Of a stretch of DNA of 64,000 bases, positions 16,413 to 53,215 are shown piece by piece (position 1 is the stretch's first letter; every line of letters begins with the position of its first letter). The stretch lies in assembly GCA_020152595.1 (NCBI GenBank), contig JAIGNY010004520.1:3859858-3923857 (forward strand). Direction: 5' to 3'. A model generated the notes under the pieces. The model was not told where the DNA came from, did no database searches, and worked only from the letters and a program-made list of their open reading frames with translations. Origin of the DNA: Chiridota heheva (lineage: Eukaryota > Echinodermata > Holothuroidea > Apodida > Chiridotidae). A program made the position numbers and the translations under genes.

Positions 16413-17509
16413 TTTACTTCAAGTTATACCTTACCTTCCATGCTATAAATATGCAATCAGATTGCAACCGAGGAACGGAAGGGAGTTCAGGCCGAAGCTC
16501 AATATTCAAAAGGCTGGTCATAAAATCAATCCTTACTTAAAGGATTAGCATCCATATTTTCTTAAAGACGAAAAACCTCTGAGCAGGAGTTTACTCAAAA
16601 GAAGTAAACCACTCCTAGTTACAGTCAAACCGAACATGTCACTACCCTTTGACAGTAACCGGGGCAAACGTCCATGAATCTGAGTAAGAAACTCAGAAAA
16701 CCTGCCTTTCGAAAGAGCATCCAGACATGATATAAACATCATAATAGTGTCTAAAATAATGCAACAAAACTCACCGAGTTCATCCACGAGATGGAACCGT
16801 CTAGTAAAACACGATTGGGAATAAAACGTGTGTTAGCTCAAAGGAATTGAAGAATTCCCAAACCAGGGAAAAAAAATTGTCAGCGTGCAACTTTGCAAGA
16901 GCAAAAGTTAGCAGGGTGACACAATCTTCGTAAAGTAAGTGGAGCAAAAAACAAGGGAATAAAAGTGACATGTGTTTACCCAAACGGCTACACGAAATAT
17001 CCCGTAAAAAGGGAACATGCCTCGAACCCGAGTGCATACCCTGGCTGTTCCATGAACAGTACCGACTATTTTAAGAGATTGCTTATGGATGATCCATCAG
17101 AGAAAAGTGTCATCGCAACACAGTACGAGATCTACGTAACAAAAAGAAGTAAGTAAATGCAATGCTGAACATCAGATGCACACTTATAAAAGCAACTCCA
17201 AAGACGCCAGACGGGGCACCATACCCCTTTCTCTCGTAAGTCCAGTGGCCACAAGTCAGTGATCATTGACCCAACTTGTTTGTTTGTTTTTTGTTTGTTT
17301 GATGAGGGCTTGATGGCACCACGACAGCAAGGGTTAAATTGTGCCTGAGAGGTTAGATCATTCTAGTGGTAGAAAGGAAAGAAAACAGAAGGAAAATGAG
17401 AGAAATACAAGAACTAAAATTCAGAAATATGGGATCGAGAGAGGAGGTGCATGGGTGAAAAAACAAAGTAGAGAGAGGAGAGGGGAGGGGGGGAGGTGGA
17501 AGAGGAGGA

Positions 17510-25265: not shown

Positions 25266-25332
25266 AGACTATAATGATTTTTATTTATATCGCTTCTTGG
25301 CGTCTAAAAAGTAAAAATATATAAAACAAACG

Positions 25333-25334
<2 letters not shown>

Positions 25335-25408
<74 letters not shown>

Positions 25409-25475
25409 TACATACAAACATACATATATATATATATACATATATACATACATACATACATACATACATACATAC
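25335..25475. repeat. (TA)n/(CATA)n microsatellite
   Basis: Mixed TATA and CATA/TACA runs immediately left of the Jockey-like LINE. The same CATA/TA type forms that LINE's 3' tail at 29,800. Confidence 0.95.
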
Positions 25476-25499
25476 AAAGCCCCGGCCCCCAACAACCTT

Positions 25500-26640
25500 C
25501 TAAAGTAGTGGTTCTGGATGAGAACAGAACCAACATTGTTTACTCCATTAGGGAGCGTTTTGTATTATTCTTGGAGTGCCCTCCAAGTACAAAGACTCTC
25601 GAGGTCAGTAGAGTATTGGCTAATTATAAACCAAACCCAGGTATAAAGAGTATCTCATGTATTAAACATGGCACATTTAAGTTATATCTAAACTCACCCG
25701 CTGACTTAAACAGACTCCTCACAAGGTGGGATAAGAGCGAATTTGGTAAGTCTACCCTCTCGTATCCCAGAGCTAATACATCTAAATCAATCTCACTAGT
25801 AGTTAAAAACGTGCCCCTTGACTTTGAGGATAAAGACTTCCTTAACGAAATTAAGAAATCTGAAAGTTCGGTTACCGGAGCCAAACGTATTATTTCTCGT
25901 AACACTGGCAATGCCACAACTCTTATCCGCATTTGGTTGTCGGACTCTTCTAGAACAGAACATCTAATTTCAAATGGTATTTTTGTTCAATTATTGCATT
26001 TCAATGTTGTTCAATCTAATGATTTCGTGAGAGTCACTCGCTGCTTTAAATGTCAAGGCTTTGGCCATCAGGCTAGCAACTGTGTCGCTGACACAAAGTG
26101 TAATATTTGTGCGGTAATCATTCTTTTAAAGATTGCCCATCAACTATAAATAAAAATGCACCAACTGCGTGCGCGAACATCCAGCATCAGATAAAACTTG
26201 CCCAGTATTTCTAGAAGAGTTCGACAAGGCCCGCTCTAAGGCCAAATCTAAAACTGAACCTAAACACGTAAGCGATCCTATCATGTCTTATGCTAAGGCT
26301 GTATCTCAAGAAATTAAAGTTAATACCGAAAAAATCATAAAGAAATTATGGATCAGTCTAATAAAATTCAAACAGAAGTAGAAAATAACCTCACTCCTCT
26401 CATTTCAAGTATTTTATCCAAAGTTATAAAAGAACTGGTGGAGAAAGTTTTTATATTTATTGCCGATCTTATGGATAAGTTTCGTTCAACTGTTGGCTTG
26501 TCCCAAACTCCCACTTCAACTATTTCAAATCTCTGTGTTCAGGTGGCCTCAGAACATCTTAAAGGTATTATTTCGAGCGACTTTCTTAAATCCTTCTCCA
26601 TCGGTGACGGAGATTTGTATCTAGATTCAGTGTTCTAGTG
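25500..26640 (+). pseudogene. Jockey-like LINE ORF1 (zinc-knuckle gag-like)
   Basis: The frame starts within or just after the microsatellite. An N-terminal segment leads to an RNA-recognition-like stretch ([16 protein letters not shown]), then [15 protein letters not shown] and CNICA, a CCHC knuckle pair. The frame breaks right after the second knuckle (about 26,110) and continues in fragments to 26,640. No upstream start is clear, since the open frame runs back through the TA repeat. The role would be binding element RNA. Confidence 0.75.
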
Positions 26641-26714
26641 CTTTCGTTTTTGTTGTGGGTTGCTTGGAGCATCATTTGCATTATTTTTCACATACCTACA
26701 CTTTTCTGTACGCT

Positions 26715-29455
26715 ATGAAAATAAGCCATTTTAATTGTAAATCCATCACAAATAAATCAGACGAAATTATTGACTTCCTTTTATCTAATAACATTTCCGT
26801 TGCAGGTTTTAATGAGACTAGACTTAAATCCTCTCATAACTTTTATATTCCAGGTTATAATTTGATTACAACTGTAAACCCCAATGGTTATTGGGGTTCT
26901 GCGATTGCAGTTGACAATAATTTATCATTTAAAATTATTGATAAGGTTTCTGATATTTTCGAACTTATCGCCATTTCACTTTCAACTCCCGATATTCCTG
27001 ATTTACTGGTAATCTGCTTATATCTACCCTGCTCTTACAAATCTTTCCCCACTAATCTGATAAACAGACTTATCGCAAAGTATAGTTCCTTTATTATTAT
27101 TGGCGATTTTAATGCTAAACACTCTCTTTGGTGGGATTCCTATGATTCCCCAAGGGCATCGATATTGTTGACTTTATACTAAATAACAACATTAAACTCA
27201 TTAATGATAAATCTCCTACTTTTTTCACGTTAACACAACGTAAACCCTGTATCCTCGATTTATGTTTACTTAGTAATAGTCTTTACTCTCACTTTGCGTT
27301 TTTTCAGGTTGGACCTGGTCTCGATAGTGACCATTTACCAATTACCTGTAGTCTCAATTGTAAAAACGTTGTTACAGTTTCGACCGACTACCCTGATTTT
27401 ACTCGAGCTAACTGGTTAGGTTTCTCTTCAGCTCTGGATTCGAGTATCGATAATTTAAGTTGTAAATCTTTCGATATTGGCACGCTTGACACTTTGGTTT
27501 CTTTCATTACTTCCTCAATTAACTCGGCCAGTTCCAAGTTCATCCCAACTAAGTCTTTCGTTGGCAATACTAGGAAGCATACCATTTTACCTCAGTATAT
27601 TATACATTTAATCAAGTTTCGTGAGGCGTTTACGTAGAAATTATAATAAAAATAAGTGCCCTTACTTAAACATAATATTAATGTAATTAGAGAAAAATTA
27701 GTACTGAAATTAAACTCTTCAAAAATCAGACTCTTTATAATAAATGTATTAAACTGGACCATAAATCTGACAGTCGTCATTTCTGGAAAAGCATTAACAA
27801 CCTTCTAAATAAATCTAAATCTAAAAATAACTCTACTCCTTTACATTATAATAACTCTACCTACTCTACTGATCTCGAGAGATGCAAGTGTTTTCGAATG
27901 TATTTTGACTCTGTCCTCTCCACGGGCCGCTCTGATAATTTCTTTGATGATCATCATTTTAATTATATTAACAATTTTGTCAGAAAAAAGAATTTTTCAA
28001 ACCTCTATTCAAAGTTTAAGTGCGAGAGAGGTGACAAACATTATTTACTTAATTCTGTTTCAGTTTTAGAATTGAAAAAGCTCTTAAAAATACTACACAG
28101 ACGGCCCCTGGGGGGGATGGAGTCACTTACCTTCATATTAAAAAGTGTTCTTTAAAATTTAAAGCTTTTCTTTGCCAACTTTACAGTATTTGTTTTAATT
28201 TTGGTATTTTTCCTATAAAGTGGAAATCTGGGCATGTCATCCTTATACCTAAGCCGGGAAAAGATCGCTCAGATCCGAAAAATTACAGACCTATTACTCT
28301 TTCTTCAGTACTCAGTAAACTTCTCGAGAGGGTCATCTGTTCTAGGCTTACCATCTATCTTAACGATATTAATTTCTTTAATAATTTTCAAGCTGGTTTC
28401 CGTTCAAAATTCAGTACCGCAGACCAGATAGCCAAGTTGTCTCATCATATTGCTTTAAACCTTTGTAAAAAACATTTTGTGTATACTGCCTTTTCGATGC
28501 GAAAAGGCTTTCGACAAATTATGGCATAATGGTCTTCTTTATAAGCTAAATAAGATCTCCCTCCCGGTAAAATTTATTCGCTTAATTGCAGACTTTTTAT
28601 TTAACAGGCAAATTCGTTTTAAAGTTAATAATGTTTTTCTGATCCTTTGCTCGTGAATAAGGGCACCCCTCAGGTAGCCCCTTAGTCCACTTCTGTTTTT
28701 AATTTTTGTAAACGACATTTCCTAACCCATCTTCTGATTACATTTATATTTCTCAATATGCTGACGACTTGGCTGTCTGGTCGTCGGCCATTAATATTCT
28801 TGCCGCAAGGGACGACTTGCAATACTATATTAACCTACTTCAATGCTGGTGCAGCAAGTGGAGATTATTCCTTAACCCGTCTAAATCACATTCTATTGTT
28901 TTCTCTACGCCGTCCTGTTTTAATCCCAATCTTAGTTTTTAATGATACCGTTATTCCAAATTATAATTCAGTCAAGTTCTTGGGTATCACGTTTGATACT
29001 AGATTTAATTTTAAACTGCATTTTGAAAGTTTGTTTAAGGAACTAAAAATTCGCACTTCCCAATTATATACTGTCTGTGGGACAGCTTATAATCCCAGAG
29101 CTCCATCGTCTTCAACCTTAATTTTGTATACTAGTCTTATTCGTTCACTCATTGAATACTCCTTTATTGTTTTCCCTCTACTCTCCAAAAGTAACGTTGT
29201 AAATTAGAGCAAATTCAAATTAATGCTCTAAAAAATTATTTTTCACATACCTCGTTGGGTTTCACCTGTTGCACTTATTGATCTTCACTCTCTTCCCAGC
29301 GTTCAATCACGGATTGATTCACTTCTTGTAAATTACTGCAAAAACCGTTTAGAAACTAATAATCACTTTATAAAAACCTGTATTCTTGATGAACAGTTGA
29401 TCCTCTCGCATCTCATTGAGCCTAGCGTTAAAGGCCCGTTCTCGGTGCCTCTTAT
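26715..29455 (+). pseudogene. Jockey-like LINE ORF2 (endonuclease-RT), frameshifted
   Basis: It starts at MKISHFNCKSITNK. Endonuclease motifs GFNETRLK, IIGDFNAKHSLWW and SDHLPIT lie at 26.7-27.35 kb, with a frameshift at about 27,160. RT motifs follow: LIPKPGKDRSDPKNYRPI (28.24 kb), a frameshifted FDAEKAFDKLW equivalent (28.5 kb), GTPQGSPLSPLLFLIFVND with a break (28.66 kb) and QYADDLAVW (28.76 kb). A thumb region with VKFLGITFDTRFNFK ends near 29.2 kb, and C-terminal remnants run to about 29,455. The YADD catalytic box is intact. Confidence 0.8.
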
Positions 29456-30949: not shown

Positions 30950-32695
30950 AAATATTTTCATTGCTAAACAAATAGGCTTATTATTATGCACACACAATCT
31001 CCCACCCATTTCAATTGAACAGTACCAATGCCCTCTACAACTGAACCAAATAGCAAGCTATTATCTCAGGTTAAATATTTTGTATGCAAGTCTATTGTTA
31101 TGCAAATAATCTACTTAATATGCACACTACACCTCACCACTAAGTGTAGACAATGGTCTTCACATACATGATCATTTGTGTAAAACAAAATCCCCACTCC
31201 CACTTTAATTTAGGAGATATCATAGGTACAAATATTTTCATTATGCAAATAAACTAATTAGTATGTACACACAACCCCAAATCATGCTCATTTGAACAGT
31301 ACCCATGTCCTCTACCCCTGTAACAAGTTGCAAGTTATCATCTAAGCTTAAATATTTCATGCAAGTCTATTGTTATGTAAATAATCTAATCAATATGCAC
31401 ATTACACCTCACCATTGAGTGTAGATAATGGTATTCACATATAAGATCATATGTGTAAACAAAATCCCCACTCCCACTTTAATTTAAGACATATCATAGA
31501 TACAAATATTTTCATTGCTATGCAAATAAGCTAATTACTATGTACACACAACCCCCAAATCATGCTTATTTGAATAGTACCCATGTCCTCTACCCCTATG
31601 CCAAGTTATATGAATGTACATCATTCCTAAATTAGGTTATGCACTCATGAATGTTAAACATTTTGTATAAGTTTGTTGTTATGCAAATAACAAAATTAAT
31701 ATGCACACTTCACCTCAACATTAAGTGTAGACAATGCTCTTCACATATATGATCATTTTTGCAAACAAAATCCCCACATCCACATTAATTTAAGAGATAT
31801 CATAGATACAAATATTTTCATTGTTATGCAAATAAACTAATTAGTATGAACACACAACCCCTAATCATACACACTTGAACAGTACCCCTATGCTAAGTTA
31901 CATAAGTGTACACCATTCATAACTTAAGTTATGAAAACTTTAACCAAAACTTTGAGCTGACAAATATTTTCATAGTTATGCAAATAAGCTAATAAGTATG
32001 CACACACAACCCCGTAATAATGTTCATTTGAACAGTACCCATGTCCTCTACCCTTATGCCAAGTCAAATGAATGTACACCATTCATAAGTTATGAAAACT
32101 TGAACCAAAACTTTAACTTAAAAAATATTTTTATTGTTATGCAAATAAGTTAATTAGTATGCACGTACAACTCCCAATAATGCTCATTTAAACAGTACCC
32201 ATGTCCTCTACCCCTATGCCAAGTCACATGAATGTACACCATTCATAAGTTTTAAAAACTTTAACCAAAAAACTTTAACCAAAACTTTAACCTGACAAAT
32301 ATTTTCATTGTTATGCAAATAAGCTAATTAGTATGTACACACAAATCTCCAATCATGCTCATTTGATCAGTACCCATGTCCTCTACCCCTATGCCAAGTC
32401 ACATGAATGTACTGTACACCATTCATAACTTAAGTTATGCGCTCATGAATGTTAAACATTTTATACAAGTCTATTGTTATGCAAATAACATAATATGCAC
32501 ACTTCACCTCAACATTAAATGTAGACAATGCTCTTCACATATATGATGAAATTTGTGCAAATAAAATCCCCACATCCACTTTAATTTAAGAGATATTATA
32601 GACACAAAATATGTCGTTGTTTTGCAAATAAGCTAATTATTATGCACACACAACCCCTAATCATGCTCACTTAAACAGTACCCATATGTCAAGTT
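30950..32695. repeat. Tandem array, long (~275-308 bp) and short (~155-173 bp) units
   Basis: Unit starts at CAAATATTTTCATTG are near 30,951, 31,229, 31,502, 31,808, 31,962, 32,124, 32,297 and 32,605. The short units lack the half containing CACCTCAACATTAAGTGTAG. Nearly every unit carries the octamer ATGCAAAT, often twice. A remnant lies at 16,010-16,144 beyond the composite insertion. Confidence 0.85.
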
Positions 32696-33011
32696 AAAAA
32701 ATGTATAGTTCCTGTGGTTATAATCGCGAAATAAAATGTGGGAAGATTTCGCAGGAAAAATCTTTTTTGTATAGATTTCTTGAGTAAGCAACAGTTTATG
32801 TGGTAAATACCGCATGTGCTCTAACCCCTTCACACCCCATGTAATTTTCTGTCACAATGTTTCGTGGGGAAAAAATTTGACACCTTTATTTAGAACCGTA
32901 GGAACATTTATTATTAATTCCAACACTGTATGGAAGTAATCCAATCAAAGTAATGGCAAGAATAAAAGTCAATTTTTAAATGAAATACAAACTTGTTGAA
33001 TGGTAACTTAC

Positions 33012-33045
33012 CTCGTCAACTGCTGCACCCTTCCGGTTTCAGCTT
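33012..33045 (-). CDS. Possible 34-nt exon of the TGN38-like gene
   Basis: TTTTTGTAG|AAGCTG and GACGAG|GTAAGT are good splice sites. Entered in phase 1 from the exon at 40,286 it stays open (AETGRVQQLT) and leaves two bases. The next known exon at 12,966 needs phase 0, so either a further exon lies in the repeat-filled 20 kb between them or this is a pseudo-exon. Its composition is not acidic like its neighbours. Confidence 0.4.
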
Positions 33046-33059
33046 CTACAAAAACAAAT

Positions 33060-36000
33060 AATTCTCATTTCAAGAATAAAACAATTGATTGATATCATTA
33101 TTGAAATTGATCAATACCTCTATCATAATACATTAAACCGATAACTAATATTGATATCATGATCGACATTGACAGATGACTAATACTGATATCATGATCG
33201 ACATTGACAGATGACTGATATTAATATCATGATCGACATTAGAAATGACTGATATTGATATCATGATCGACATTGACAGATGACTAATATTGATATCATG
33301 ATCGACACTGAGAGATGGCTGATATTGATATCATGATCAACATTGACAGATGACTGATATTGATATCATGATTGACATTGACAGACTAATATTAATATCA
33401 TGATCGACATTGACAGATGACTAATATTGATATCATCACCGACACTAACAGATGACTGATATTGATATCATCACCGACACTAACAGATGACTGATATTGA
33501 TATATCATGATCGACAATGATAGATGACTGATATTAATATCATGATCAACATTCATTGATGACTGATATTGATATCATGGATTGACATTTGATAGATGGC
33601 TGATACTGATGATCGACACTAATAGGCTGATATTGATATAATGATCGACAGTGATAAATGGCCGATATCAATATCATGATGGAAATTGATAGATGGCTAA
33701 TTTTGATATCTTGATTGACATTGATAGATGACTGATATTAATACCATGATCAACATTGATAGGTGATTGTGATTGATATTGAGAGATATAACATGGTGAC
33801 AGATGACTGATATTGATATCATGATCAATGACAGATGAGATATTGTGATGACTGATATTGATATCATGAAGGTCAAATTGTGCCTGAGAGGTCAGATCAT
33901 TTTAGAGGTAGTAAGGAAAGAGACCAGGGGAAGAATGAGAGAAATTCAAGAACAAAAGCCAGAAAGCTGTGATCGAGAGAGGAGGTGCATGGGTAAAACT
34001 GATGGTTGTAGAGGGATGGCTGATATTATCTGGAGGATTTTTTAACATGGGATCGAACGTGTTGGATTTGACAGATGACTGATATTGATATCATGATCGA
34101 CGAAGAAAGGTTGTTGATTTGATCGGGATTGTGGGCTGGATAACATGGAGTTTGTTATCAATTTGACAGATGACGGTTTGATATTGATATCATGATCAGG
34201 GATGCCAACATGGCTGGGTATGACAGATGACTGATATTGATATCATGAGCCTTTGAGTCAGAGAAAATGGCAAAGTGACTAAGAGACGACTGATATTGAT
34301 ATCATGATCGACATTGACAGATGACTGATATTGATATCATGATCGACATTGACAGATGACTGATATTGATATCATGATCGACATTGACACATGATTGATA
34401 TTGATATCATGATCGACATTGACAGATGACTGATATTGATATCGTGATCGACATTGACGGATGACTGATATTGATATCATGATCGACATTGACAAATGAC
34501 TGATATTGATATCATGATCGACATTGACAGATGACTGATATTGATATCATGATCGACATTGACAGATGACTGATATTGATATCATAATCGACATTGACAG
34601 ATGACTAATATTGATATAATGATCAACATTGACAGATGACTGATATTGATATCATGATCGACATTGACAGACTAATATTAATATCATGATTGACATTGAC
34701 AGATGACTGATATTGATATCATCACTGACACTAACAGATGACTGATATTGATATCATCACCGACATTAACAGATGACTGATATTGATATCATCACTGACA
34801 CTAACAGATGACTGATATTGATATATCATGATCGACAATGATAGATGACTGATATTGATATCATGATCAACATTCATTGATGACCGATATTGATATCATG
34901 GATTGACATTTGATAGATGGCTGACACTGATGATCGACACTGATAGGCTGATATTGATATCATGATCGGCACTGATAAATGGCCAAAATTAATGTCATGA
35001 TGGACATTGATAGATGGCTGATATTGATATCTTGATTGACATTAATGGATGACTGATATGGATACCATGATCAACATTGATAGGTGATTGATATTGATAT
35101 AATAATCAACAATGACAGGTGACTGATATTGATATCATGATCGACACTGAGAGATGGCTGATATTGATATCATGATCGACATTGACAGATGATTGATATT
35201 GATATCATGATCAACATTGATAGATAACTGATATTGATATCAAGATCGACACTAAAAGATGACTGATATTGATATCATGATCGACATTGACAGATCACTG
35301 ATATTGATATCATGATCGACATTGACAGATGATTGATATTGATATCATGATCGACATTGACAGATGACTGACATTGATATCATGATTGACACTAGTAGAT
35401 GACTGATATTGATATCATGATCGACATTGATAGATGACTGATATTGATATCATGATCGACATTAATAGATGACTGATATTGATATCATGATCAACACTGA
35501 TGATGATTAACACTGATAGATGACTAATATGATCTGATATAGATGATATATATGATCAACACTGATGATTAACACTGATAGATGACTGATATTGATATTA
35601 TGATCGCTATGACAGGTGACTGATATTAATTTCATGATCAACATTAATAAATGACTGATATTGATATCATGATTGACATTAATAGATGACTGATATTGAT
35701 ATCATGATCAACACTGATAGATGACAGATATTGATATCATGATCGACATTGATAGATGACTAATATTGATATCATGATCGACATTAATAGATGACTGATA
35801 TTAATATCATGATCGACATTAATAGATGACTGATATTAATATCATGATCAAAATTAATAGGTGACTGATATTGATTTCATGATTGACATTAATAGATGAC
35901 TGATATTAATATAATAATAAACACTAATAGATGACTGATATTGATATCATGATCGACATTGATAGATGACTGATACTGATATCATGATCAACAATTTCTA

Positions 36001-36230
36001 ATATTAAAATCACGATCGACAATCTCTGATATTACTATCATGATCGACATTGATATAAGACTTTGATATCATATCTGACATTGATACCATGATCATTATT
36101 GATAAATGACTGATACTGATATCATGATTGATTTTAATTCCATCATTGATACCAAGATTAATATTACTTATGACTCATATCAATATCACCATTGATATTA
36201 ATATCCTTATTAATATTAATCATCTTTAGC
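33060..36230. repeat. 35-bp satellite array (~3.2 kb)
   Basis: The consensus is near GACTGATATTGATATCATGA followed by TCGACATTGACAGAT. The unit is internally self-complementary around TGATATCA and ATCATGAT. The period is 35 bp through the homogeneous core (34.3-35.9 kb), and units decay at both edges. I estimate 80-90 copies. A LINE-satellite mosaic interrupts it at 33,868-34,293. Confidence 0.95.
33868..34293 (-). mobile_element. I-type LINE slices interleaved with satellite units
   Basis: LINE pieces appear in the same order as in the copy at 50.5-51.3 kb: 50,506-50,637, about 50,680-50,700, about 50,725-50,743, 50,809-50,822, 50,934-51,006, 51,053-51,062, 51,142-51,165 and 51,274-51,311. 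Satellite units of roughly 10-35 bp stand where the intervening LINE sequence should be. The first piece (about 130 bp) matches the 50.5-kb copy without a visible difference. About 805 bp of LINE is compressed into 425 bp. Confidence 0.85.
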
Positions 36231-44711: not shown

Positions 44712-45098
44712 ATGTTTGTTCGTTTGTTTGTTTGATGAGGGCTTAACAGTACCACGACAACGAGGGTCAAATTGTGCCTGAGAGGTTAGATCATTCCAGT
44801 GGTAGGAAGAAAAGGAAACAGGGGGAGATTTCAAAAACTAAAGGTCAGAAAGCTGTGATCGAAAGGGGCATGGTTTAAACAGAAACAAAGTAGAGAGGGG
44901 GTGGAAGAGGAGAATTAAATATGGTTGTGGAGGGAAGCATGATGAAGGAAGGAGATCATTATATCCGGAGGATTTTTCTGGAAGAACTCAGCAATTGAGT
45001 TGTAAGGAGCGCGAGAAGCTCTGGGAAGGTTGTACAGGGGGCAAGCAAGGAGAACGTGATGGATTGTGAGGATGCAGTGGCAATTGTTGCAGAGAGAA
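44712..45098 (-). mobile_element. 5'-truncated I-type LINE (copy A)
   Basis: GTTTGTTTGTTTGATGAGGG tail, 3' UTR and the terminal CNNCHC.LT..HVLLACPLYN segment of ORF2. It stops at GTTGCAGAGAGAATT, the same breakpoint as the copy at 49,029, as expected for a duplicated insertion. Confidence 0.85.
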
Positions 45099-45725
45099 TT
45101 TAAATGCATTTTACTTTATGATATGGAATATGGAGTACACACAACTAAAATTTTGACAAATCAACAAAAAATCAATTTGCCTGCCATACAGGCAGGAATA
45201 TCTAAATTTGTGGTTGTCTTGAAAGTAAACAAGGTTGCCCCGTGGAAATTCTTTTAACATGTACGTATATTGTGCAATGCAAATTTTGCTGAAAACTAAT
45301 CTATCCATCCGGGCAGGTCAAGTAAGACTTTTGGTTGTCCCGAGCAACTGGATGTATGATTTGTTGAATACTTATCACTCATGCTCTCTCATACAAAGAG
45401 TACATTTCCATATGTGAGCACTTTAAGTCATTTAAAATACTTTGATATGATATGGAATATAAAGTATGATATGGAATATGGAGTACACACCACTAAAAGT
45501 TTTGAGCTTGGGTATGAATAGTTTCTATGAATAATTTGACCCCAAAAAATGGGAATTTAAGAAAAAGTGGAAAAACATCATGATATTTGATATGGTATAC
45601 TGTAGTACAGTACTTCAGTAAAATCATGCTAAGAATTCAAAAAATCACCGTACAAAAGAAACAAATTCAAAATAAAGTGTTTACATACACCATGTTGTAT
45701 AGGTTACATATTAATGTCAGATCTT

Positions 45726-45895
45726 GGTTTGATTTGTTGATGTTTAACGCCACCACGAAAGTCAGAGTCAAATGTGCCAAGATGGTGATAAAACCAAGGT
45801 GCTTGAGTTAGAACAGAGAGCAAAGGAAGGTGGGATAGAATAGAGGGAAGTGGGGAGGGATGGGGGAAGGTGGATAAAGGAAAGGAGTTAGGGTA
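45726..45895 (-). mobile_element. 3' end of a related LINE family (copy A)
   Basis: GTTTAACGCCACCACGAAAG and GTCAAATGTGCC parallel the main family's TTAACGGCACCACGACAACG and GTCAAATTGTGCC, but the rest is different. It is therefore a sister family in the same orientation. The counterpart in copy B is at 50,056-50,245. Confidence 0.55.
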
Positions 45896-45934
45896 ATCAA
45901 ATCTTGTTCATACTTGTAACATCCAAGCTTTGAT

Positions 45935-46292
45935 ATTATTATTCTTCATACTCAAACTCCTTCGTTCTGAATCTCTTGATTTAGAGTATGAACGATTAAA
46001 ATGGATAAATTCTTGGTTAATTGACAGATCACAAAGATTTGTTGTTAATGGTGAAGCATCTCCATGAGAGAAAGTTACAAGTGGTGTTCCTCAGGGTTCT
46101 GTATTGGGTTCACTTCTTTTCTTAATCTTCATTAATAATAATGATGTTTTCCTTGGCTCCAGGATTTGTAGCTTTGCTGATGACACTAAGCTGTACAGGA
46201 TTGTCAATGATGCTAGGGATGCTTCACTTTTGCAAAGTGATCTGGATAGTTCCTAGGTCCCAAATGTGGCAGATGTCATTCAATGTTGATAA
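45935..46292 (+). pseudogene. CR1-like LINE reverse transcriptase relic (copy A)
   Basis: The plus-strand frame reads [38 protein letters not shown] and ICSFADDTKLYRIVND, followed by WQMSFNVDKC. FADDTKLY is the catalytic box wording of CR1/L2/Rex-type LINEs. Stop codons interrupt it. The copy continues after the inserted fragment as CTVIHFGQSKFG near 46,680, and after the TIR element only beyond copy B, at 56,393. Confidence 0.75.
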
Positions 46293-46674
46293 ATGCAGCA
46301 AAGTTCAAGTGTTCAAATGCATGAGAAGCATTTTGAACATCAGATGGCCATATGTTGTTTCAAATGATGAATTATTGAGATTTACTAAGAGAATTAGCAA
46401 CAAAGTCAAAATGAGAAGATGGAGGTGCATTGTGCATGTATTACGAATGAAAGGACAGCCACTACATGACAGCATTGACATGAAAGCTAAAAGGGAAAAG
46501 GAAAGTAAGATGCCAAAGAACGACATGGAGAAGAACGGTAGTGAAGGAAAGAGAAGAGCTAGGGTGGAATTCTTGGAATGAAGCCAGACACGTTGCCAAA
46601 GACAGGATACATTGGAGAGAGTACACTGGAGCCATATGGGACGCATGGCCTAAAGAGGACAGTGAGTGAATGAA
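46293..46674 (+). mobile_element. RTE-like LINE 3' fragment nested in the CR1 relic (copy A)
   Basis: Encodes VSNDELLRFTKRISNKVK, MRRWRCIVHVLRMKGQPLH and a C-terminal W-rich end, wording typical of RTE/BovB-like C termini. The tail is TGAATGAATGAA. AAATGCA..AGT at both edges (about 46,291 and 46,678) suggests a target duplication. The open frame to 46,581 is chimeric, not a gene. Confidence 0.65.
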
Positions 46675-46959
46675 TGAAATGCACAGTTATTCATTTTGGT
46701 CAAAGTAAATTTGGATTAAATTTTCACGGTTTTGGCTCTTCTTAAAACTGGCGGTTTCTATAACAACCTCCGGTTTAAACCTACAAACCAAGTATTTTCA
46801 AACTTTTTGTAAACAAAACTCAGAAAGCAACAAAGTGCATTAACCCTACCCATACTGCTATTGTTCTATCACTTTTTCATTATTGCAAGTACAGTATGTT
46901 ATGTAAATAATGCTGAAAATCAGAACGGAGGACTTGGTGAATAAACTACACTTACAAAC

Positions 46960-47345
46960 TTGTTGTTAGAGTGTAGCGTGATTTTATTAATCCATTTTGA
47001 TTAATAAACTTGTATGTTGTTAGAGTGTAGCGTGATTTTATTAATCCATTTTGATTTATAAACTTATATGTTGTTAGTGTGTAGTGTGATTGTATCAATA
47101 GAGTGTAGCGTGATTTTATTAATCCATTTTGATTAATAAACTTGTACGTTGTTAGTGTGTAGCGTGATTTTATTAATCCATTTTGATTAATAAACTTGTA
47201 TGTTGTTAGTGTGTAGCGTGATTTTATTAATCCATTTTGATTAATAAACTTGTATATTGTTAGTGTGTATCATGATTTAAGCATCCATTTTGATTAATAA
47301 ACTTATATGTTGTTAGCGTGTAAAGTGATTTTATTACTCCATTTT
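46960..47345. repeat. 54-bp minisatellite (copy A), about six copies
   Basis: The unit is near TTGTTAGTGTGTAGCGTGAT followed by TTTATTAATCCATTTTGATT and AATAAACTTGTATG. One unit is shortened around 47,085. The copy-B array is at 53,885-54,305. Confidence 0.9.
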
Positions 47346-47582
47346 GCCCTCAAATATGCCAATTTTGACTCCAGTCTATGTCTGAAGGCATAAACCAACT
47401 CCAACTGTAGTATGCGGTGGGAAAAATCCCCTTGCTAATTGCAACACAACAATAATTTGATTACATAAATCAGTAACATAATTGAAGCAAAGAGAAAAGA
47501 AAATGCCCGCTAATTAGCATGAACAGTATTGCCCCACTCCCCACCAAATCCATATTTCCTTCATCAAAATTAAAGTTAAAAG

Positions 47583-47670
47583 TTTGTTTGTTTGTTTGAT
47601 GAGGGCTTAACGGCACCACGACAACGAGGGTCAAATTGTGCCTGAGAGGTCAGATTATTCTAGAGGTAGG
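47583..47670 (-). mobile_element. Very short I-type LINE 3' end (copy A)
   Basis: About 85 bp: GTTTG tail, TTAACGGCACCACGACAACG and the GAGAGGTCAGAT block only. Counterpart at 54,541-54,630. Confidence 0.8.
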
Positions 47671-49028
47671 AGCTGTACTTTCAGCAATATTAATTTGACT
47701 CATGGTTTGATATCAATCCAAATTACTTTGTATTCTGTAAACCCACTTTGTGGTCTTTTGTTTCGGAAGGTTTTTGATCATGGCAGAATTCAGTCGTGCA
47801 ATACACTTTAAGCTATCAACTTTGAAAATAAAAAAATAAAATTTGGTTCAACATTGTGTTTCAAACATTTAGCAGTGATAAACAATATTTTCATTGTCAT
47901 TCAGTAATCATGTTTAATGAAAAATAAATGTGTATCTGAACATTCTTTTTCTGGATGCATTTATAGAACAATGTATAGAAACAATATCATTCATATACTG
48001 TATGTATGTTAATAAGCTATTACCTAGAGCATCCACAAAGAATTTATATAAACCAGCTACACTTCGAACTAATGATATCATTTTTAGTGAGTCCCCAAAC
48101 CAAGCAATAAACATATGAAACGTCCAATATACACAACACGTGACAGCGATGGAAGTTTGCATTGCTAGCACTTACAGTAATATGCAATGAATGGCAGAGC
48201 GTTTCCAAAGCTGAAAGTTACAGTAAATGGGGTTGAAATGTATATTTCTTTTCATATTTGAACAGTTTTGACTGGGTTCAGTGTTTAGAAATATATTTTT
48301 CACATGTACATGTCACGGGGGCATGGAATTCAAATTATTCAGAAAATTAAGTCATTTTTTCTTGACGATCATTTTTTCTTGACGATCATATCATGAATAA
48401 TTATCATACAAAGTGACAAAAAACAAGTGGATATTTCATTTCTGTTGGACATCAATATACCGTAGTGATTTTTCCCTTCCTCGTTAATTATCATTATCTT
48501 ACGATTTTTAGCGACGGTTTTTTCCAGCAGAAAATTGCAATTCTCCCACTCCAAAAACCTTAAAAATAAAAACAAAAAACTTAAAAACAAGTTTGATCTT
48601 TATCCTAGTTACCAGGGTGGCACTTGATTTAAGGAGCTGTTGACAGGTCCCTGCTTAAATTAAGAACCTTACCAAGTTGAATGGAACTAACACACTGTAG
48701 TGCTTAACTATAATCATGGAGGTACATGTACAGTTGAAATGACTGTCTAGGTTTCGTAAGTGCATAAATTTCAATCATTTTTGTGTTTTTATGTTTGATT
48801 ATCTTCTTGGTATCAATTAATTTGTATTTGTGACATTGTAAACCTTAACCAAAAGCATTTCGTTCACAAAAGTGATTAAATAATGTTTTTACATTACCGA
48901 TACCCAAATGTAGTAAATGTTTCAGTCTTTGTGTGTACAGTATATGGTATTTTAATACTCATTCATAAAATCTGAAGAACAGTGCCAGTTCTCATTGGAT
49001 AAATAAATGAGAGGGTGTGTTTTAGACC

Positions 49029-50254: not shown

Positions 50255-50464
50255 TGTAACATCCAAGCTTTAATATTAATATTCTTCATACTCAAACTCC
50301 TTCGTTCTGAATCTCTTGATTTGGAGTATGAACGATTAAAATGGATAAATTCTTGGTTAATTGACAGATCACAAAGATTTGTTGTTAATGGTGAAGCATC
50401 TCCATGGAAGAAGGTTACAAGTGGTGTTCCTCAGGGTTCTGTATTGGGTCCACTTCTTTTCTTA
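50255..50464 (+). pseudogene. CR1-like RT relic, left half (copy B)
   Basis: Contains the [15 protein letters not shown] and [14 protein letters not shown] wording, then is cut by the LINE at 50,465. It resumes at 53,042 with VFLGSRICSFADDTKLYRIV. Copy B keeps GPLLF, where copy A has GSLLF. Confidence 0.75.
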
Positions 50465-53041
50465 TTGTTTGTTTGTTTGATGAGGTCTTAACGGCACCAC
50501 GACAACGAAGGTCAAATTGTGCCTGAGAGGTCAGATCATTTTAGAGGTAGTAAGGAAAGAGACCAGGGGAAGAATGAGAGAAATTCAAGAACAAAAGCCA
50601 GAAAGCTGTGATCGAGAGAGGAGGTGCATGGGTAAAACTAAAAACAAAGTAGAGAGGGGGTGGAAGAGGAGGATTAAATATGGTTGTAGAGGGATGCATG
50701 CTGAAGGAAGGAGACTATTTTATCTGAAGGATTTTTTTGGAAGAACTCAGCAATTGAGTTGTGGGGAGCGAGAGAAGCTCTGGGAAGGTTGTACAGGGGC
50801 AAGCAAGGAGAACGTGTTGGATTGTAAGGATGCAGTGGCAATTGTTACAGAGGGGTTGGGGAACCAATAAGGAGGTGGGAGTGAGTGAGGTGGGTGTGAC
50901 CAATTCTAAGACGGGTAATATGAACGTTGTCGATACGAGAAAGGTTGTTGATGGTGGATTTGATCGGGATTGTGGGCTGGATAACATGGAGTTTGTTATT
51001 AATTTGGAAGTTCCATAAGGTTTGCCAGCGGTCACGAACAAGAGAAGCGATAAGCGGTTTGATGTCAGAGAGGGTTTTGGGAAAAGGGGAAGGGAGGAGG
51101 TTAAGGGCAAGCTTAGCGGCTGTATCAGCCCTGTCATTGCCAGGGATGCCAACATGGCTGGGTATCCAGAAGAAAAGAACACTTTTCCTGCAGAGGGTGG
51201 GAGAAAGAGTTTCCGGAGGAGGAGGTGGCAGGTGAGGTTATCCCATTTAAGATTGAGTAATGAAGTAAGAACAGCCTTTGAGTCAGAGAAAATGGCAAAG
51301 TGACTAAGAGGAGAGTACTCAATAAAGTTGAGGGCGAGGAGAATGGCCTTAGCCTCGGCTGAAAAGATGGATGAGTGGTCAGGAAGTCTGCTACTGAGGG
51401 TGATGTCTTGGATGATGGCAGCAGCAGCTGTCTTGTTGCCTTCCTTGGAGCCATCAGTATAGATGGAGGTGTAATTTGAGAGTTGGTCTTTGATTTGGTT
51501 GTGGAGATTGATGAAGAGATTAGGGTGAGTTTGAGTTTTGTTATAAGTGGAGAGGTCTAGGTGGACAGAAGGAGGGGGGGTGGCCCAAGGCGGAAAAGTG
51601 GGCCAGGAATAGGTGCCGAGAGTGGCGGGGTTGATGCCAAGTTGAAAGAGGTCTGATTTAATGCGTAAGCTGAAGGGGGCGATAGGGTTTTAGTCCTATC
51701 AAAGAGGGAGGAGAAATTGGGGTACCTAATGAGGTTGTAAACAGGGTTCTGAGTGTTGGTGAGGACTCTAAAAGCATAGGAGAGGCTAAGCTTTTTACAT
51801 CTAAGTAGAAAGGGGGGTTCGTTGGCTTCAACATGAAGGCTAGTGATTGGGGAGGTCCTGTAGGCTCCTAGACAAAGCCTGAGGGCTTCATTTTGGATGG
51901 TGTTAATGTGGTTGAGGTATGAGTTGTGAGCGACACAGTAAACAATATTGCCATAGTCAAGCTTGGCACGAATGGTGAGCCTGAAAATTTTGAGGAGAGC
52001 ATGGCGGTTCGCTCCCCAAGTAGTGTTGGAGAGCAGTCGGAGGAGGTTGAGGGAGCTATTGCATTTTAGTTTCAGGTTGGTGATGTGTGGCTTGTAGGTG
52101 AGCTTGGGGTCTAGAGTTAGACCAAGGAACTTTGTGTTTTCAACTTTAGGGATGCGATTCCCATTGAGCACAAAGTTCGGGTTGGGGTGGAGGTTGTTGA
52201 AATGACAAAAGTGCATGCAGACTGTCTTGTCTTTGGAGAATCTAAAACCGTTATTGTTGCTCCAGACTTGCAGCTGATTGAGGCTGGTTTGAAGCCTATT
52301 TTCAACAATAGGAAAGCTAGGGGAGGAGTAGAAGATGGTGAAGTCATCCACGTAGAGGGTACGTTTGATGCTGGGGCCAAGGTCATTCCCGATGTCATTA
52401 ATGCTCAGGTTGAAGAGAGTGGGGAGAGGATGCTGCCTTGGGGACGCCCTCTTCTTGGGGTACGGCTTGGAGAGGGTGTGGCCAATACGAACTTGGAACT
52501 GCCTGGGTGAGAGGAAGTTTTGAATAAAGATGGGGAGGTGGCCTCTGAGGCCAATGGTGTGAAGTTTCGGGTAATGCCGTATTTCCAAGTAGTGTCGAAA
52601 GCTTTTCGAGGTCAAAAAATATGGCAATGAGGTGTTCCTTTTTGCAAAGGATTCCCGGATAGCGGTGTCGGCGTAATTAACTGGTCTAGGGTATTGCGGC
52701 GTTTTGGAAGCCGCTTTGGTGAGAGAGGATTCTGTTGGTCTCGAGGAACCAGTTTAGTCTCTGATTAATGATCTTTTCCATAATTTTACAGAGACAGCAA
52801 GTAAGGCGATGGGTCGGTAGCTGGTGGGGGGCGGTGCTATCCTTCCCGGTTTAAGGACGGGGATGACAATAGCTGTCCTCCAGATAGGGGGAAAGGAGTG
52901 TGAGGACCAAATGTGGTTGAAGATGGTGAGTAGGGTAGTGGTGGCTTTGATGGGGAGGTGTTTCAGAAACTGATAGGGGATGTTATCTGGGCCCTTGGAG
53001 GTGCAGCCAGCATCGCTGATGGCTTGGTTTAATTCAGAATG
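50465..53041 (-). mobile_element. I-type LINE inserted in copy B, 10-bp TSD
   Basis: TCTTTTCTTA at 50,455-50,464 is repeated at 53,042-53,051, and copy A shows the empty site at 46,110-46,125. The element runs from the GTTTG tail back through RNase H into RT, and is 5'-truncated near SELNQAISDAGCTSKGPDNI. The insertion post-dates the duplication. It is much less decayed than the 17.3-kb copy in the thumb and RNase H part. Confidence 0.9.
50695..53038 (-). pseudogene. Partial I-type LINE ORF2 (RT to RNase H)
   Basis: The longest piece is open from 52,627 to 51,557 and contains RRTLYVDD-like (TLYVDDFTIFYSSPSF), KFLGLTLDPKLTYKP and TIQNEALRLCLGAYRTSP, that is, RT box C, thumb and connection. 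RNase H follows at 51.45-51.1 kb (TDGSKEGNK, SAEAKAI, VGIPGNDRADTAAK), and then RLRIGHTHLTHSHLL with CNNCHC. The N-terminal endonuclease is absent because of 5' truncation. Frameshifts near 52.55, 52.75 and 51.55 kb inactivate it. Confidence 0.85.
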
Positions 53042-53215
53042 TCTTTTCTTAATCTTGATTAATAATAAAGTTTTCCTTGGCTCCAGGATTTGTAGCTTTG
53101 CTGATGACACTAAGCTGTACAGGATTGTCAATGAAACCAGGGATGCTTTACTTTTGCTAAGTGATCTGGATAGTTCCTTGGTCCCAAATGTGGCAGATGT
53201 CATTCAATGTTGATA
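53042..53215 (+). pseudogene. CR1-like RT relic, right half (copy B)
   Basis: Continues VFLGSRICSFADDTKLYRIV and NETRDALLLLSDLDSSLVPN after the LINE insertion. The RTE-like fragment follows. Confidence 0.7.

What the first reader, a model, noticed from the sequence alone, without database searches (positions are those of the whole stretch)
33868..34293. LINE sliced in collinear order through a 35-bp satellite
At least eight pieces of an I-type LINE, 10 to 130 bp each, follow one another in the LINE's own order. Satellite units of similar size replace the missing stretches, and joins often fall at short shared words (GATG, GATTT, TGA). The long piece matches the copy at 50.5 kb without a visible difference. 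Random decay cannot give this. Either it is a consensus artefact from merging a satellite haplotype with a LINE-bearing haplotype, or a true patchwork made by repeated template switching or gene conversion.
Basis: seen in the sequence. Interest (0 to 1): 0.75.

Follow-up and report, generated by a model that had tools for sequence, protein, structure and literature searches.

The report
LINE–satellite patchwork, probably assembly artefact

Summary
At 33868-34283 eight slices of a young RNase-H-type LINE (minus strand; homologous to 50507-51308) follow one another in LINE order among 35-bp satellite. The fit scores 169.5; 80 unrelated or shuffled decoys reach at most 76. LINE slices total 300 bp of 802; satellite fills only about 116 bp. 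The LINE did not come from the 50.5-kb copy, which differs at two sites from the mosaic and from every informative family copy checked. Best reading: a consensus artefact. Reads with a LINE in the satellite and reads without it were merged along one alignment graph. For it: both sequences advance together, satellite nearly in register; 12 of 12 joins share a base; indels cluster in the satellite just before the LINE; a second locus shows slicing in a different satellite with deletions fading away from the array while mismatches stay flat; simulated mixed-read consensus makes such mosaics; no second haplotig seen among scored matches. Against: no raw reads; the simulation does not predict which slices survive and, unlike the data, also raises mismatches near the LINE. 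A real template-switching patchwork remains possible (about 0.12).

The parts
33088..33779 (+). 35-bp satellite, left block, similar to about 34400-35085 (87% over 33088-33869 against 34400-35175)
   Evidence: TRF array 33140-35993, unit GATGACTGATATTGATATCATGATCGACATTGACA; self-alignment
33780..33867 (+). disturbed satellite next to the LINE: 8 indel events at 33780-33841, mismatches at the background of the array; may hold remnants of the LINE 3' end
   Evidence: alignment to the duplicate block; LINE-end remnant only by eye and by a 6-bp match
33868..34000 (-). LINE piece 1 (= 50507-50639, 133/133)
34001..34014 (-). LINE piece 2 (= 50679-50692, 13/14)
34015..34025 (+). satellite fill, phases 0-10 (read as LINE at the higher switch cost)
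34026..34042 (-). LINE piece 3 (= 50720-50736)
   Evidence: 17/18 over 34026-34043
34043..34054 (+). satellite-like fill, weakly assigned
   Evidence: at cost 5; 34044-34054 assigned to LINE 17426-17436 at 10/11
34055..34067 (-). LINE piece 4 (= 50810-50822, 13/13)
34068..34099 (+). satellite fill, phases 29-25, 32/32 to the consensus unit
34100..34115 (-). LINE piece 5 (= 50935-50949, 15/16)
34116..34162 (-). LINE piece 6 (= 50957-51003, 46/47), after a 7-bp LINE skip
34163..34196 (+). satellite fill, phases 29-5, then about 4 extra bases, then phases 6-23; by eye the extra bases may belong to a 9-bp LINE word
   Evidence: the 9-bp word was not tested
34197..34220 (-). LINE piece 7 (= 51141-51164, 24/24)
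34221..34247 (+). satellite fill, phases 30-21, 27/27 to the consensus unit
34248..34283 (-). LINE piece 8 (= 51273-51308; match runs to 34285 = 51310)
34284..36203 (+). satellite, right block (34300-34700 is 96% to the consensus unit)
50464..53039 (-). nearest long relative of the LINE in the window; 3' end at about 50464, shorter at the 5' side than the copy at 17.3 kb; 10-bp target-site duplication TCTTTTCTTA seen by eye

Best explanation
The patchwork is most likely a product of assembly, not a molecule. One version of this locus (one haplotype, or some copies of the array) carries a young LINE inside the 35-bp satellite, probably an insertion of about 850 bp or more in minus orientation; the other version is plain satellite. 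The assembler kept one contig and built its consensus from both kinds of read. When LINE reads and satellite reads are threaded through one alignment graph they share short words by chance, and the consensus path hops between them at those words. Such a path must move forward along both sequences, so it gives LINE slices in LINE order and satellite close to register, joins with shared bases, dropped LINE stretches, and a zone of extra indels around the LINE. Shown: the mosaic, its order, shared bases at joins, the indel cluster, and a second locus with the same pattern in another satellite. Inferred: heterozygosity of the LINE, mixed reads, and a graph- or alignment-based consensus step.
For: Order and significance of the LINE slices. 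Satellite stays near register: six satellite-LINE-satellite passages (cost-5 segmentation) lose 43 bases in all, P=0.0076 for random re-entry; four passages at cost 7 lose 29, P=0.027. Joins: 12 of 12 share at least 1 base, P=0.00045. Halo: against the duplicate block, 8 indel events fall at 33780-33841 and 6 in the preceding 660 bp, while mismatches stay at background (9 in 33720-33819, 2 in 33820-33868; elsewhere 3-11 per 100). Second locus L006/L009 (contig C2179): the same LINE family in ordered slices with words of a different, about 70-bp satellite between them; in the rest of that LINE deletions per 250 bp run 7,7,8,4,4,4,0,0,0,1,4,2,1,1,1,0 outward from the array and mismatches stay flat (34:18 against 10:24 with the cut chosen after seeing the bins, Fisher P=0.0018). 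L005, inside a 40-bp satellite, has six deletions of 4 bp or more in about 230 bp of LINE with 3 mismatches. Simulated partial-order consensus of LINE and plain reads gave at least 3 LINE blocks in 18 of 72 runs and at least 5 in 10 of 72; 4 LINE plus 6 plain reads at 13% error gave 5-7 blocks, with 206-295 LINE bases without and 99-196 with 5 extra satellite units. In 90 further runs with the LINE in the minority 87 had at least 3 LINE pieces. The locus appears once among scored matches. The LINE family is young: the best 40 of 1137 candidates are 99-100% identical over 436 bp, so unfixed insertions are plausible.
Against: No raw reads, coverage or assembly method were available, so heterozygosity and read mixing are inferred. 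The simulation does not predict which LINE parts survive (r=0.03 after the first block, shift P=0.31); its register keeping (mean skip 14.0, uniform 17) and join overlap (1.19, 69% of 1162 joins with a shared base) are weaker than observed; and in it mismatches rise toward the LINE too (0.3 to 2.4 per run and bin, indels 2.1 to 4.6), whereas the data show indels without extra mismatches. Simulated pieces were read with an order-forcing model, so they do not test order; in the first, cruder run 8 of 12 consensuses were flagged as out of order, for which one repeated 11-mer in the LINE part may be the cause. In one search, 54 of 72 runs had fewer than 3 blocks. The kept LINE parts at L006 resemble those here (r=0.46, run-permutation P=0.007); L006 was found by similarity to the mosaic, which biases this, but a cause in the LINE itself is not excluded. 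LINE L053, with tandem arrays on both sides, and L071, with one on the left, are continuous, so tandem context alone does not cause slicing. The first piece is 133 bp without an error.
Confidence: 0.8

Rival explanations
1. True patchwork in DNA: during repair or replication a polymerase switched repeatedly between a LINE-bearing and a LINE-free satellite template (microhomology-mediated break-induced replication or iterative synthesis-dependent annealing), each time re-annealing a little further along both templates.
For: Ordered slices; 12 of 12 joins with shared bases, mean 1.83. Very short templated inverted duplications, most about 5-34 bp, are reported at yeast breaks (abstract start of PMC11724301 in the listing).
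Against: Needs about 12 LINE/satellite switches in about 420 bp that advance along both templates; does not by itself explain the indel cluster or the deletion gradient with flat mismatches at L006/L009, nor the recurrence in unrelated satellites.
Confidence: 0.12
2. Internally deleted LINE variant: a LINE lineage that already lacked several stretches inserted into the array, and satellite bases fill the gaps by alignment chance or later mutation.
For: Similar stretches are missing at L006 (r=0.46); L004, L005, L007 and the mosaic lack parts of the LINE about 28-56 bases from its 3' end.
Against: Satellite pieces of 32 and 27 bp without a mismatch sit in the gaps, and another satellite does so at L006; 0 of 30 copies taken in coordinate order are in three or more ordered blocks.
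Confidence: 0.05
3. Ordinary decay of an old LINE in a satellite array by nested deletions and array turnover.
For: Array turnover is evident: the left and right blocks are duplicates at 87%.
Against: The LINE slices are nearly free of substitutions (133/133, 38/38, 24/24) and the score is far above the 80 decoys.
Confidence: 0.02

Closest known systems
Mixed-haplotype consensus error in long-read correction or assembly (partial order alignment, heaviest-bundle consensus)
   Same: Consensus built from reads of more than one haplotype distorts the true sequences. Passages of PMC9636371 (VeChat) seen say that consensus-based correction masks variants of lower-frequency haplotypes, and that VeChat itself builds partial order graphs and uses the heaviest-bundle algorithm in its second cycle.
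   Different: The passages seen speak of masked variants, not of a LINE-satellite patchwork; that such a patchwork can result is shown here only by simulation.
Microhomology-mediated break-induced replication, chromoanasynthesis, templated insertions
   Same: Short templated pieces joined at microhomology (abstract starts of PMC13065848, PMC8421209 and PMC11724301, listing).
   Different: Here two templates advance in parallel through the switches, and a cluster of indels lies beside the site.
Chimeric LINE insertions by template jumping during reverse transcription
   Same: Different sequences fused during LINE copying; tripartite chimera in Magnaporthe (title and abstract start of PMC2104539, listing).
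   Different: That chimera, by its title, has three parts; here eight small LINE slices alternate with genomic satellite.
RNase-H-bearing non-LTR retrotransposons (I group, group name recalled)
   Same: RVT_1 (E 1.5e-10) and RNase H (E 6.5e-5, 23.6 bits, just under the curated 25.8) on the minus strand of the relative at 50.5 kb.
   Different: Clade placement was not tested by a tree; the mosaic itself is not a member but a cut copy.

Membership tests
Mixed-read consensus artefact | Path is monotone along both source sequences | tested here: met
   LINE order under free jumps for pieces of 13 bp or more; satellite near register, P=0.0076 at cost 5 and 0.027 at cost 7; two small satellite re-phasings inside fills were not counted as passages
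Mixed-read consensus artefact | Joins at bases shared by both sources | tested here: met
   12 of 12 joins, P=0.00045
Mixed-read consensus artefact | Extra indels around the site without a matching rise of substitutions | tested here: met
   33780-33841; deletions at L006/L009. The simulation itself also raised mismatches
Mixed-read consensus artefact | Locus present once in the assembly, no separate haplotig | tested here: met
   14 of 14 candidates scored; 40 of 4831 and 40 of 3044 scored; only the locus itself matches the unique parts of the flanks, other rows match a dispersed repeat; the tool skips very common words
Mixed-read consensus artefact | Simulated consensus predicts which LINE parts survive | tested here: not met
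   r=0.03, shift P=0.31; not a strict requirement, as the real software is unknown
Mixed-read consensus artefact | Raw reads show LINE-only and satellite-only molecules and no mosaic molecule | not testable with these tools
   no reads held
MMBIR / templated insertion | Microhomology at junctions | tested here: met
   does not distinguish it from a graph path
MMBIR / templated insertion | Single molecules carry the junctions | not testable with these tools
   no reads held
RNase-H-bearing LINE of the I group | Reverse transcriptase and RNase H domains | tested here: met
   on the 50.5-kb relative; RNase H slightly below the curated cut-off
RNase-H-bearing LINE of the I group | Placement in the I clade by phylogeny | not tested

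The most novel reading that the evidence does not exclude
The mosaic is a real molecule: a LINE-bearing and a LINE-free satellite array exchanged strands dozens of bases at a time, with a polymerase hopping between two paired templates and advancing along both. The recurrence at L006, and perhaps L005, in unrelated satellites would then mean that young LINE insertions in tandem arrays are a hotspot for such parallel template switching.
Probability: 0.12. Interest if true: 0.75.

Novelty: not a real feature. Interest (0 to 1): 0.22.

Why it matters
If it is an artefact, it shows how collapsed heterozygous insertions in tandem arrays can leave convincing but false patchworks in a reference, with a recognisable signature: two monotone tracks, shared bases at the joins, and extra indels that fade away from the array. 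Anyone who reads microhomology patchworks or satellite-embedded element fragments from assemblies should screen for it. If it is real, it would be direct evidence for repeated parallel template switching in satellite DNA.

Tried and rejected
Copying from the LINE at 50.5 kb was rejected: the mosaic reads TTATC and ATCTGGAGG where the 50.5-kb copy reads TTATT and ATCTGAAGG; the copies at 17 kb and 4 kb share TTATC, L002 has both mosaic states, and so have 29 of 29 loci L014-L042; of the 30 loci L051-L080, 24 have the mosaic's state at each site, none the other state, and 6 hold neither form of TTATC/TTATT. Chance was rejected. Exact search of one satellite word in viral and bacterial/archaeal collections found 0. 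A test whether simulated retention predicts the kept LINE parts failed (180 of 240 runs used, those with 10-75% of the LINE kept); kept parts beyond the first piece are AT-richer (41.9% against 49.0% GC; shift P=0.014 for smoothed GC). The similarity of kept parts between the mosaic and L006 is noted but biased by how L006 was found. In the listings of paper searches I saw no title or abstract start about such a LINE-satellite patchwork; these are capped lists. Only passages of PMC9636371 were read. The species was not identified.

Full report
What is there. The window is the last 64 kb of a 3.92-Mb contig (C3646) in an unnamed 1.10-Gb assembly of 3744 contigs. A 35-bp satellite runs from 33.1 to 36.0 kb. 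Inside it, 33868-34283 alternates between satellite and slices of a LINE. The LINE lies on the minus strand; its relative at 50464-53039 encodes a reverse transcriptase and a weak RNase H match. Eight slices, 300 bp in all, follow the LINE from position 50507 to 51308 (switch cost 5). For slices of 13 bp or more the order appears even when the alignment may jump anywhere; a few assignments of 11 bp or less to other LINE places do not follow it and look like chance.

Is it more than chance? For 34001-34293 the true LINE scores 169.5, 40 Markov shuffles 72.0 on average and 76.0 at most, 40 other window segments 69.7 and 72.5; block-shuffled LINEs average 130.1 (n=10, highest 151.5) and the block-reversed LINE 105.5. 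So both the slices and their order matter. Of 8 control stretches of the array 7 used no LINE and one used 5 bp.

Satellite fills sum to about 116 bp against about 500 bp of missing LINE, so they are not of equal size. The match to the copy at 50.5 kb is not special: L002 matches 135 of 135 bases, the best 40 of 1137 candidate copies are 99-100% identical over 436 bp, and one 19-mer occurs 3565 times with no hit for the reversed control. At two sites the mosaic has the family state and the 50.5-kb copy its own: 29 of 29 loci and 24 of 30 loci carry the mosaic's states, none the other. The LINE here is therefore a separate young copy.

Two tracks that both move forward. Satellite phases stay nearly in register through the LINE pieces: at switch cost 5 the six losses are 14, 4, 4, 3, 6 and 12 bases, sum 43, P=0.0076 for random re-entry; at cost 7, where 34001-34067 is read as LINE, four losses of 8, 3, 6 and 12 give P=0.027. 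At 12 of 12 LINE/satellite joins of the cost-5 reading at least one base is common to both sources; mean 1.83 against 0.71, P=0.00045. A path through an alignment graph of two sequences must look like this. A template-switching polymerase could share bases at joins but need not advance along both templates.

Halo. The left satellite block has a duplicate at 34400-35175. Between them 6 indel events fall from 33120 to 33384, none from there to 33779, and then 8 at 33780-33841, directly before the LINE; mismatches stay at background, 9 in 33720-33819 and 2 in 33820-33868 against 3-11 per 100 elsewhere. Several of the 8 events lie close together and may reflect fewer changes.

A second and perhaps a third place. 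The first genome search also returned L006 on contig C2179. There the same LINE family is cut into ordered slices, and words of a different, roughly 70-bp satellite sit between them. Further into that LINE, deletions per 250 bp fall from 7-8 to about 0-1 over 1.5 kb, with a small rise to 4 further on, while mismatches stay flat; 34 deletions to 18 mismatches in the first 1.5 kb against 10 to 24 beyond, P=0.0018, with the cut chosen after seeing the bins. I know of no mutational process that makes such a gradient; a consensus in which LINE-free reads are mixed in near the array could. L005, inside a 40-bp satellite, and L007, an older copy beside a 58-bp satellite, are also rich in deletions; their satellite patches are short (4 bp or less among the LINE pieces) and prove nothing. 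These places were found by similarity to the mosaic and are not an unbiased sample. Of 30 copies taken in coordinate order from contigs C1-C3 (of 3565 hits), none was in three or more ordered blocks, two (L072, L079) had one internal gap, L061 and L065 were the richest in gaps (29 and 33 bases), and L053, with tandem arrays on both sides, was continuous. Slicing is rare.

Can mixed reads make it? I simulated noisy reads of satellite with and without the 846-bp LINE part and took a partial-order, heaviest-bundle consensus. Of 72 runs 18 had at least 3 LINE blocks and 10 at least 5; with 4 LINE and 6 plain reads at 13% error the three runs without extra satellite gave 5-7 blocks and 206-295 LINE bases, the three with 5 extra units 5-7 blocks and 99-196 bases; 300 are observed. 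In 90 runs with the LINE in the minority 87 had at least three LINE pieces and 69% of 1162 joins shared a base. Results against: across 180 selected of 240 runs the retention profile does not match the kept LINE parts (r=0.03 beyond the first piece); the simulation keeps the satellite register less well than observed; flank indels rise toward the LINE but so do mismatches, unlike the data; and a crude first run flagged 8 of 12 consensuses as out of order, perhaps through one repeated 11-mer. So the simulation shows that the mechanism can work, not that this exact software made it.

Is the locus collapsed? The array has no second copy at high identity (elsewhere at most 71% over more than 150 bp, and two stretches under 100 bp at 78%). 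The unique part of the right flank (36205 to about 36965) and of the left flank (about 32708-33085) match only this place among the scored candidates (40 of 3044 and 40 of 4831). One consensus seems to stand for all versions of the locus.

Judgement. The pattern is real in the file and not chance. A mixed-read consensus explains order, register, joins, indel cluster and recurrence together; a biological patchwork explains the joins and, with effort, the order. I put the artefact at 0.80 and a real patchwork at 0.12. Reads would decide.

Noticed in passing
window 50425-53075 and 46085-46150: The LINE at 50464-53039 has, by eye, a 10-bp target-site duplication (TCTTTTCTTA) and lies in the second copy of a tandem duplication whose first copy (44718-49021) keeps the empty site.
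   Followed up: partly
L006/L009 (contig C2179), L005 (C503), L007 (C304): Other copies of the same LINE family with several deletions inside or beside unrelated tandem arrays; L006 shows satellite words between ordered LINE slices.
   Followed up: partly
LINE positions about 28-56 from the 3' end in L004, L005, L007 and the mosaic: All four lack part of the same stretch just inside the LINE 3' end; cause unknown. No tandem repeat was found in L004.
   Followed up: no
mosaic 33868-34283 and L006 1282-1640: The LINE parts kept at the two places are similar (r=0.46, run-permutation P=0.007), though L006 was found by similarity to the mosaic.
   Followed up: partly
L053: A continuous LINE copy with tandem arrays on both sides, a useful control.
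   Followed up: no
window 33088-33869 and 34400-35175: The satellite array contains a duplication at a distance of about 1.3 kb with shared unit variants, 87% identical; the mosaic lies at the end of the first copy.
   Followed up: partly
window 25325-29207, + strand: A second LINE-like element in several frames, with a weak zinc-knuckle match and endonuclease and reverse transcriptase matches.
   Followed up: no
window 31883-32710: A 160-bp-period tandem repeat; the stretch 32440 to about 32707 next to it belongs to a repeat family found on many contigs.
   Followed up: no
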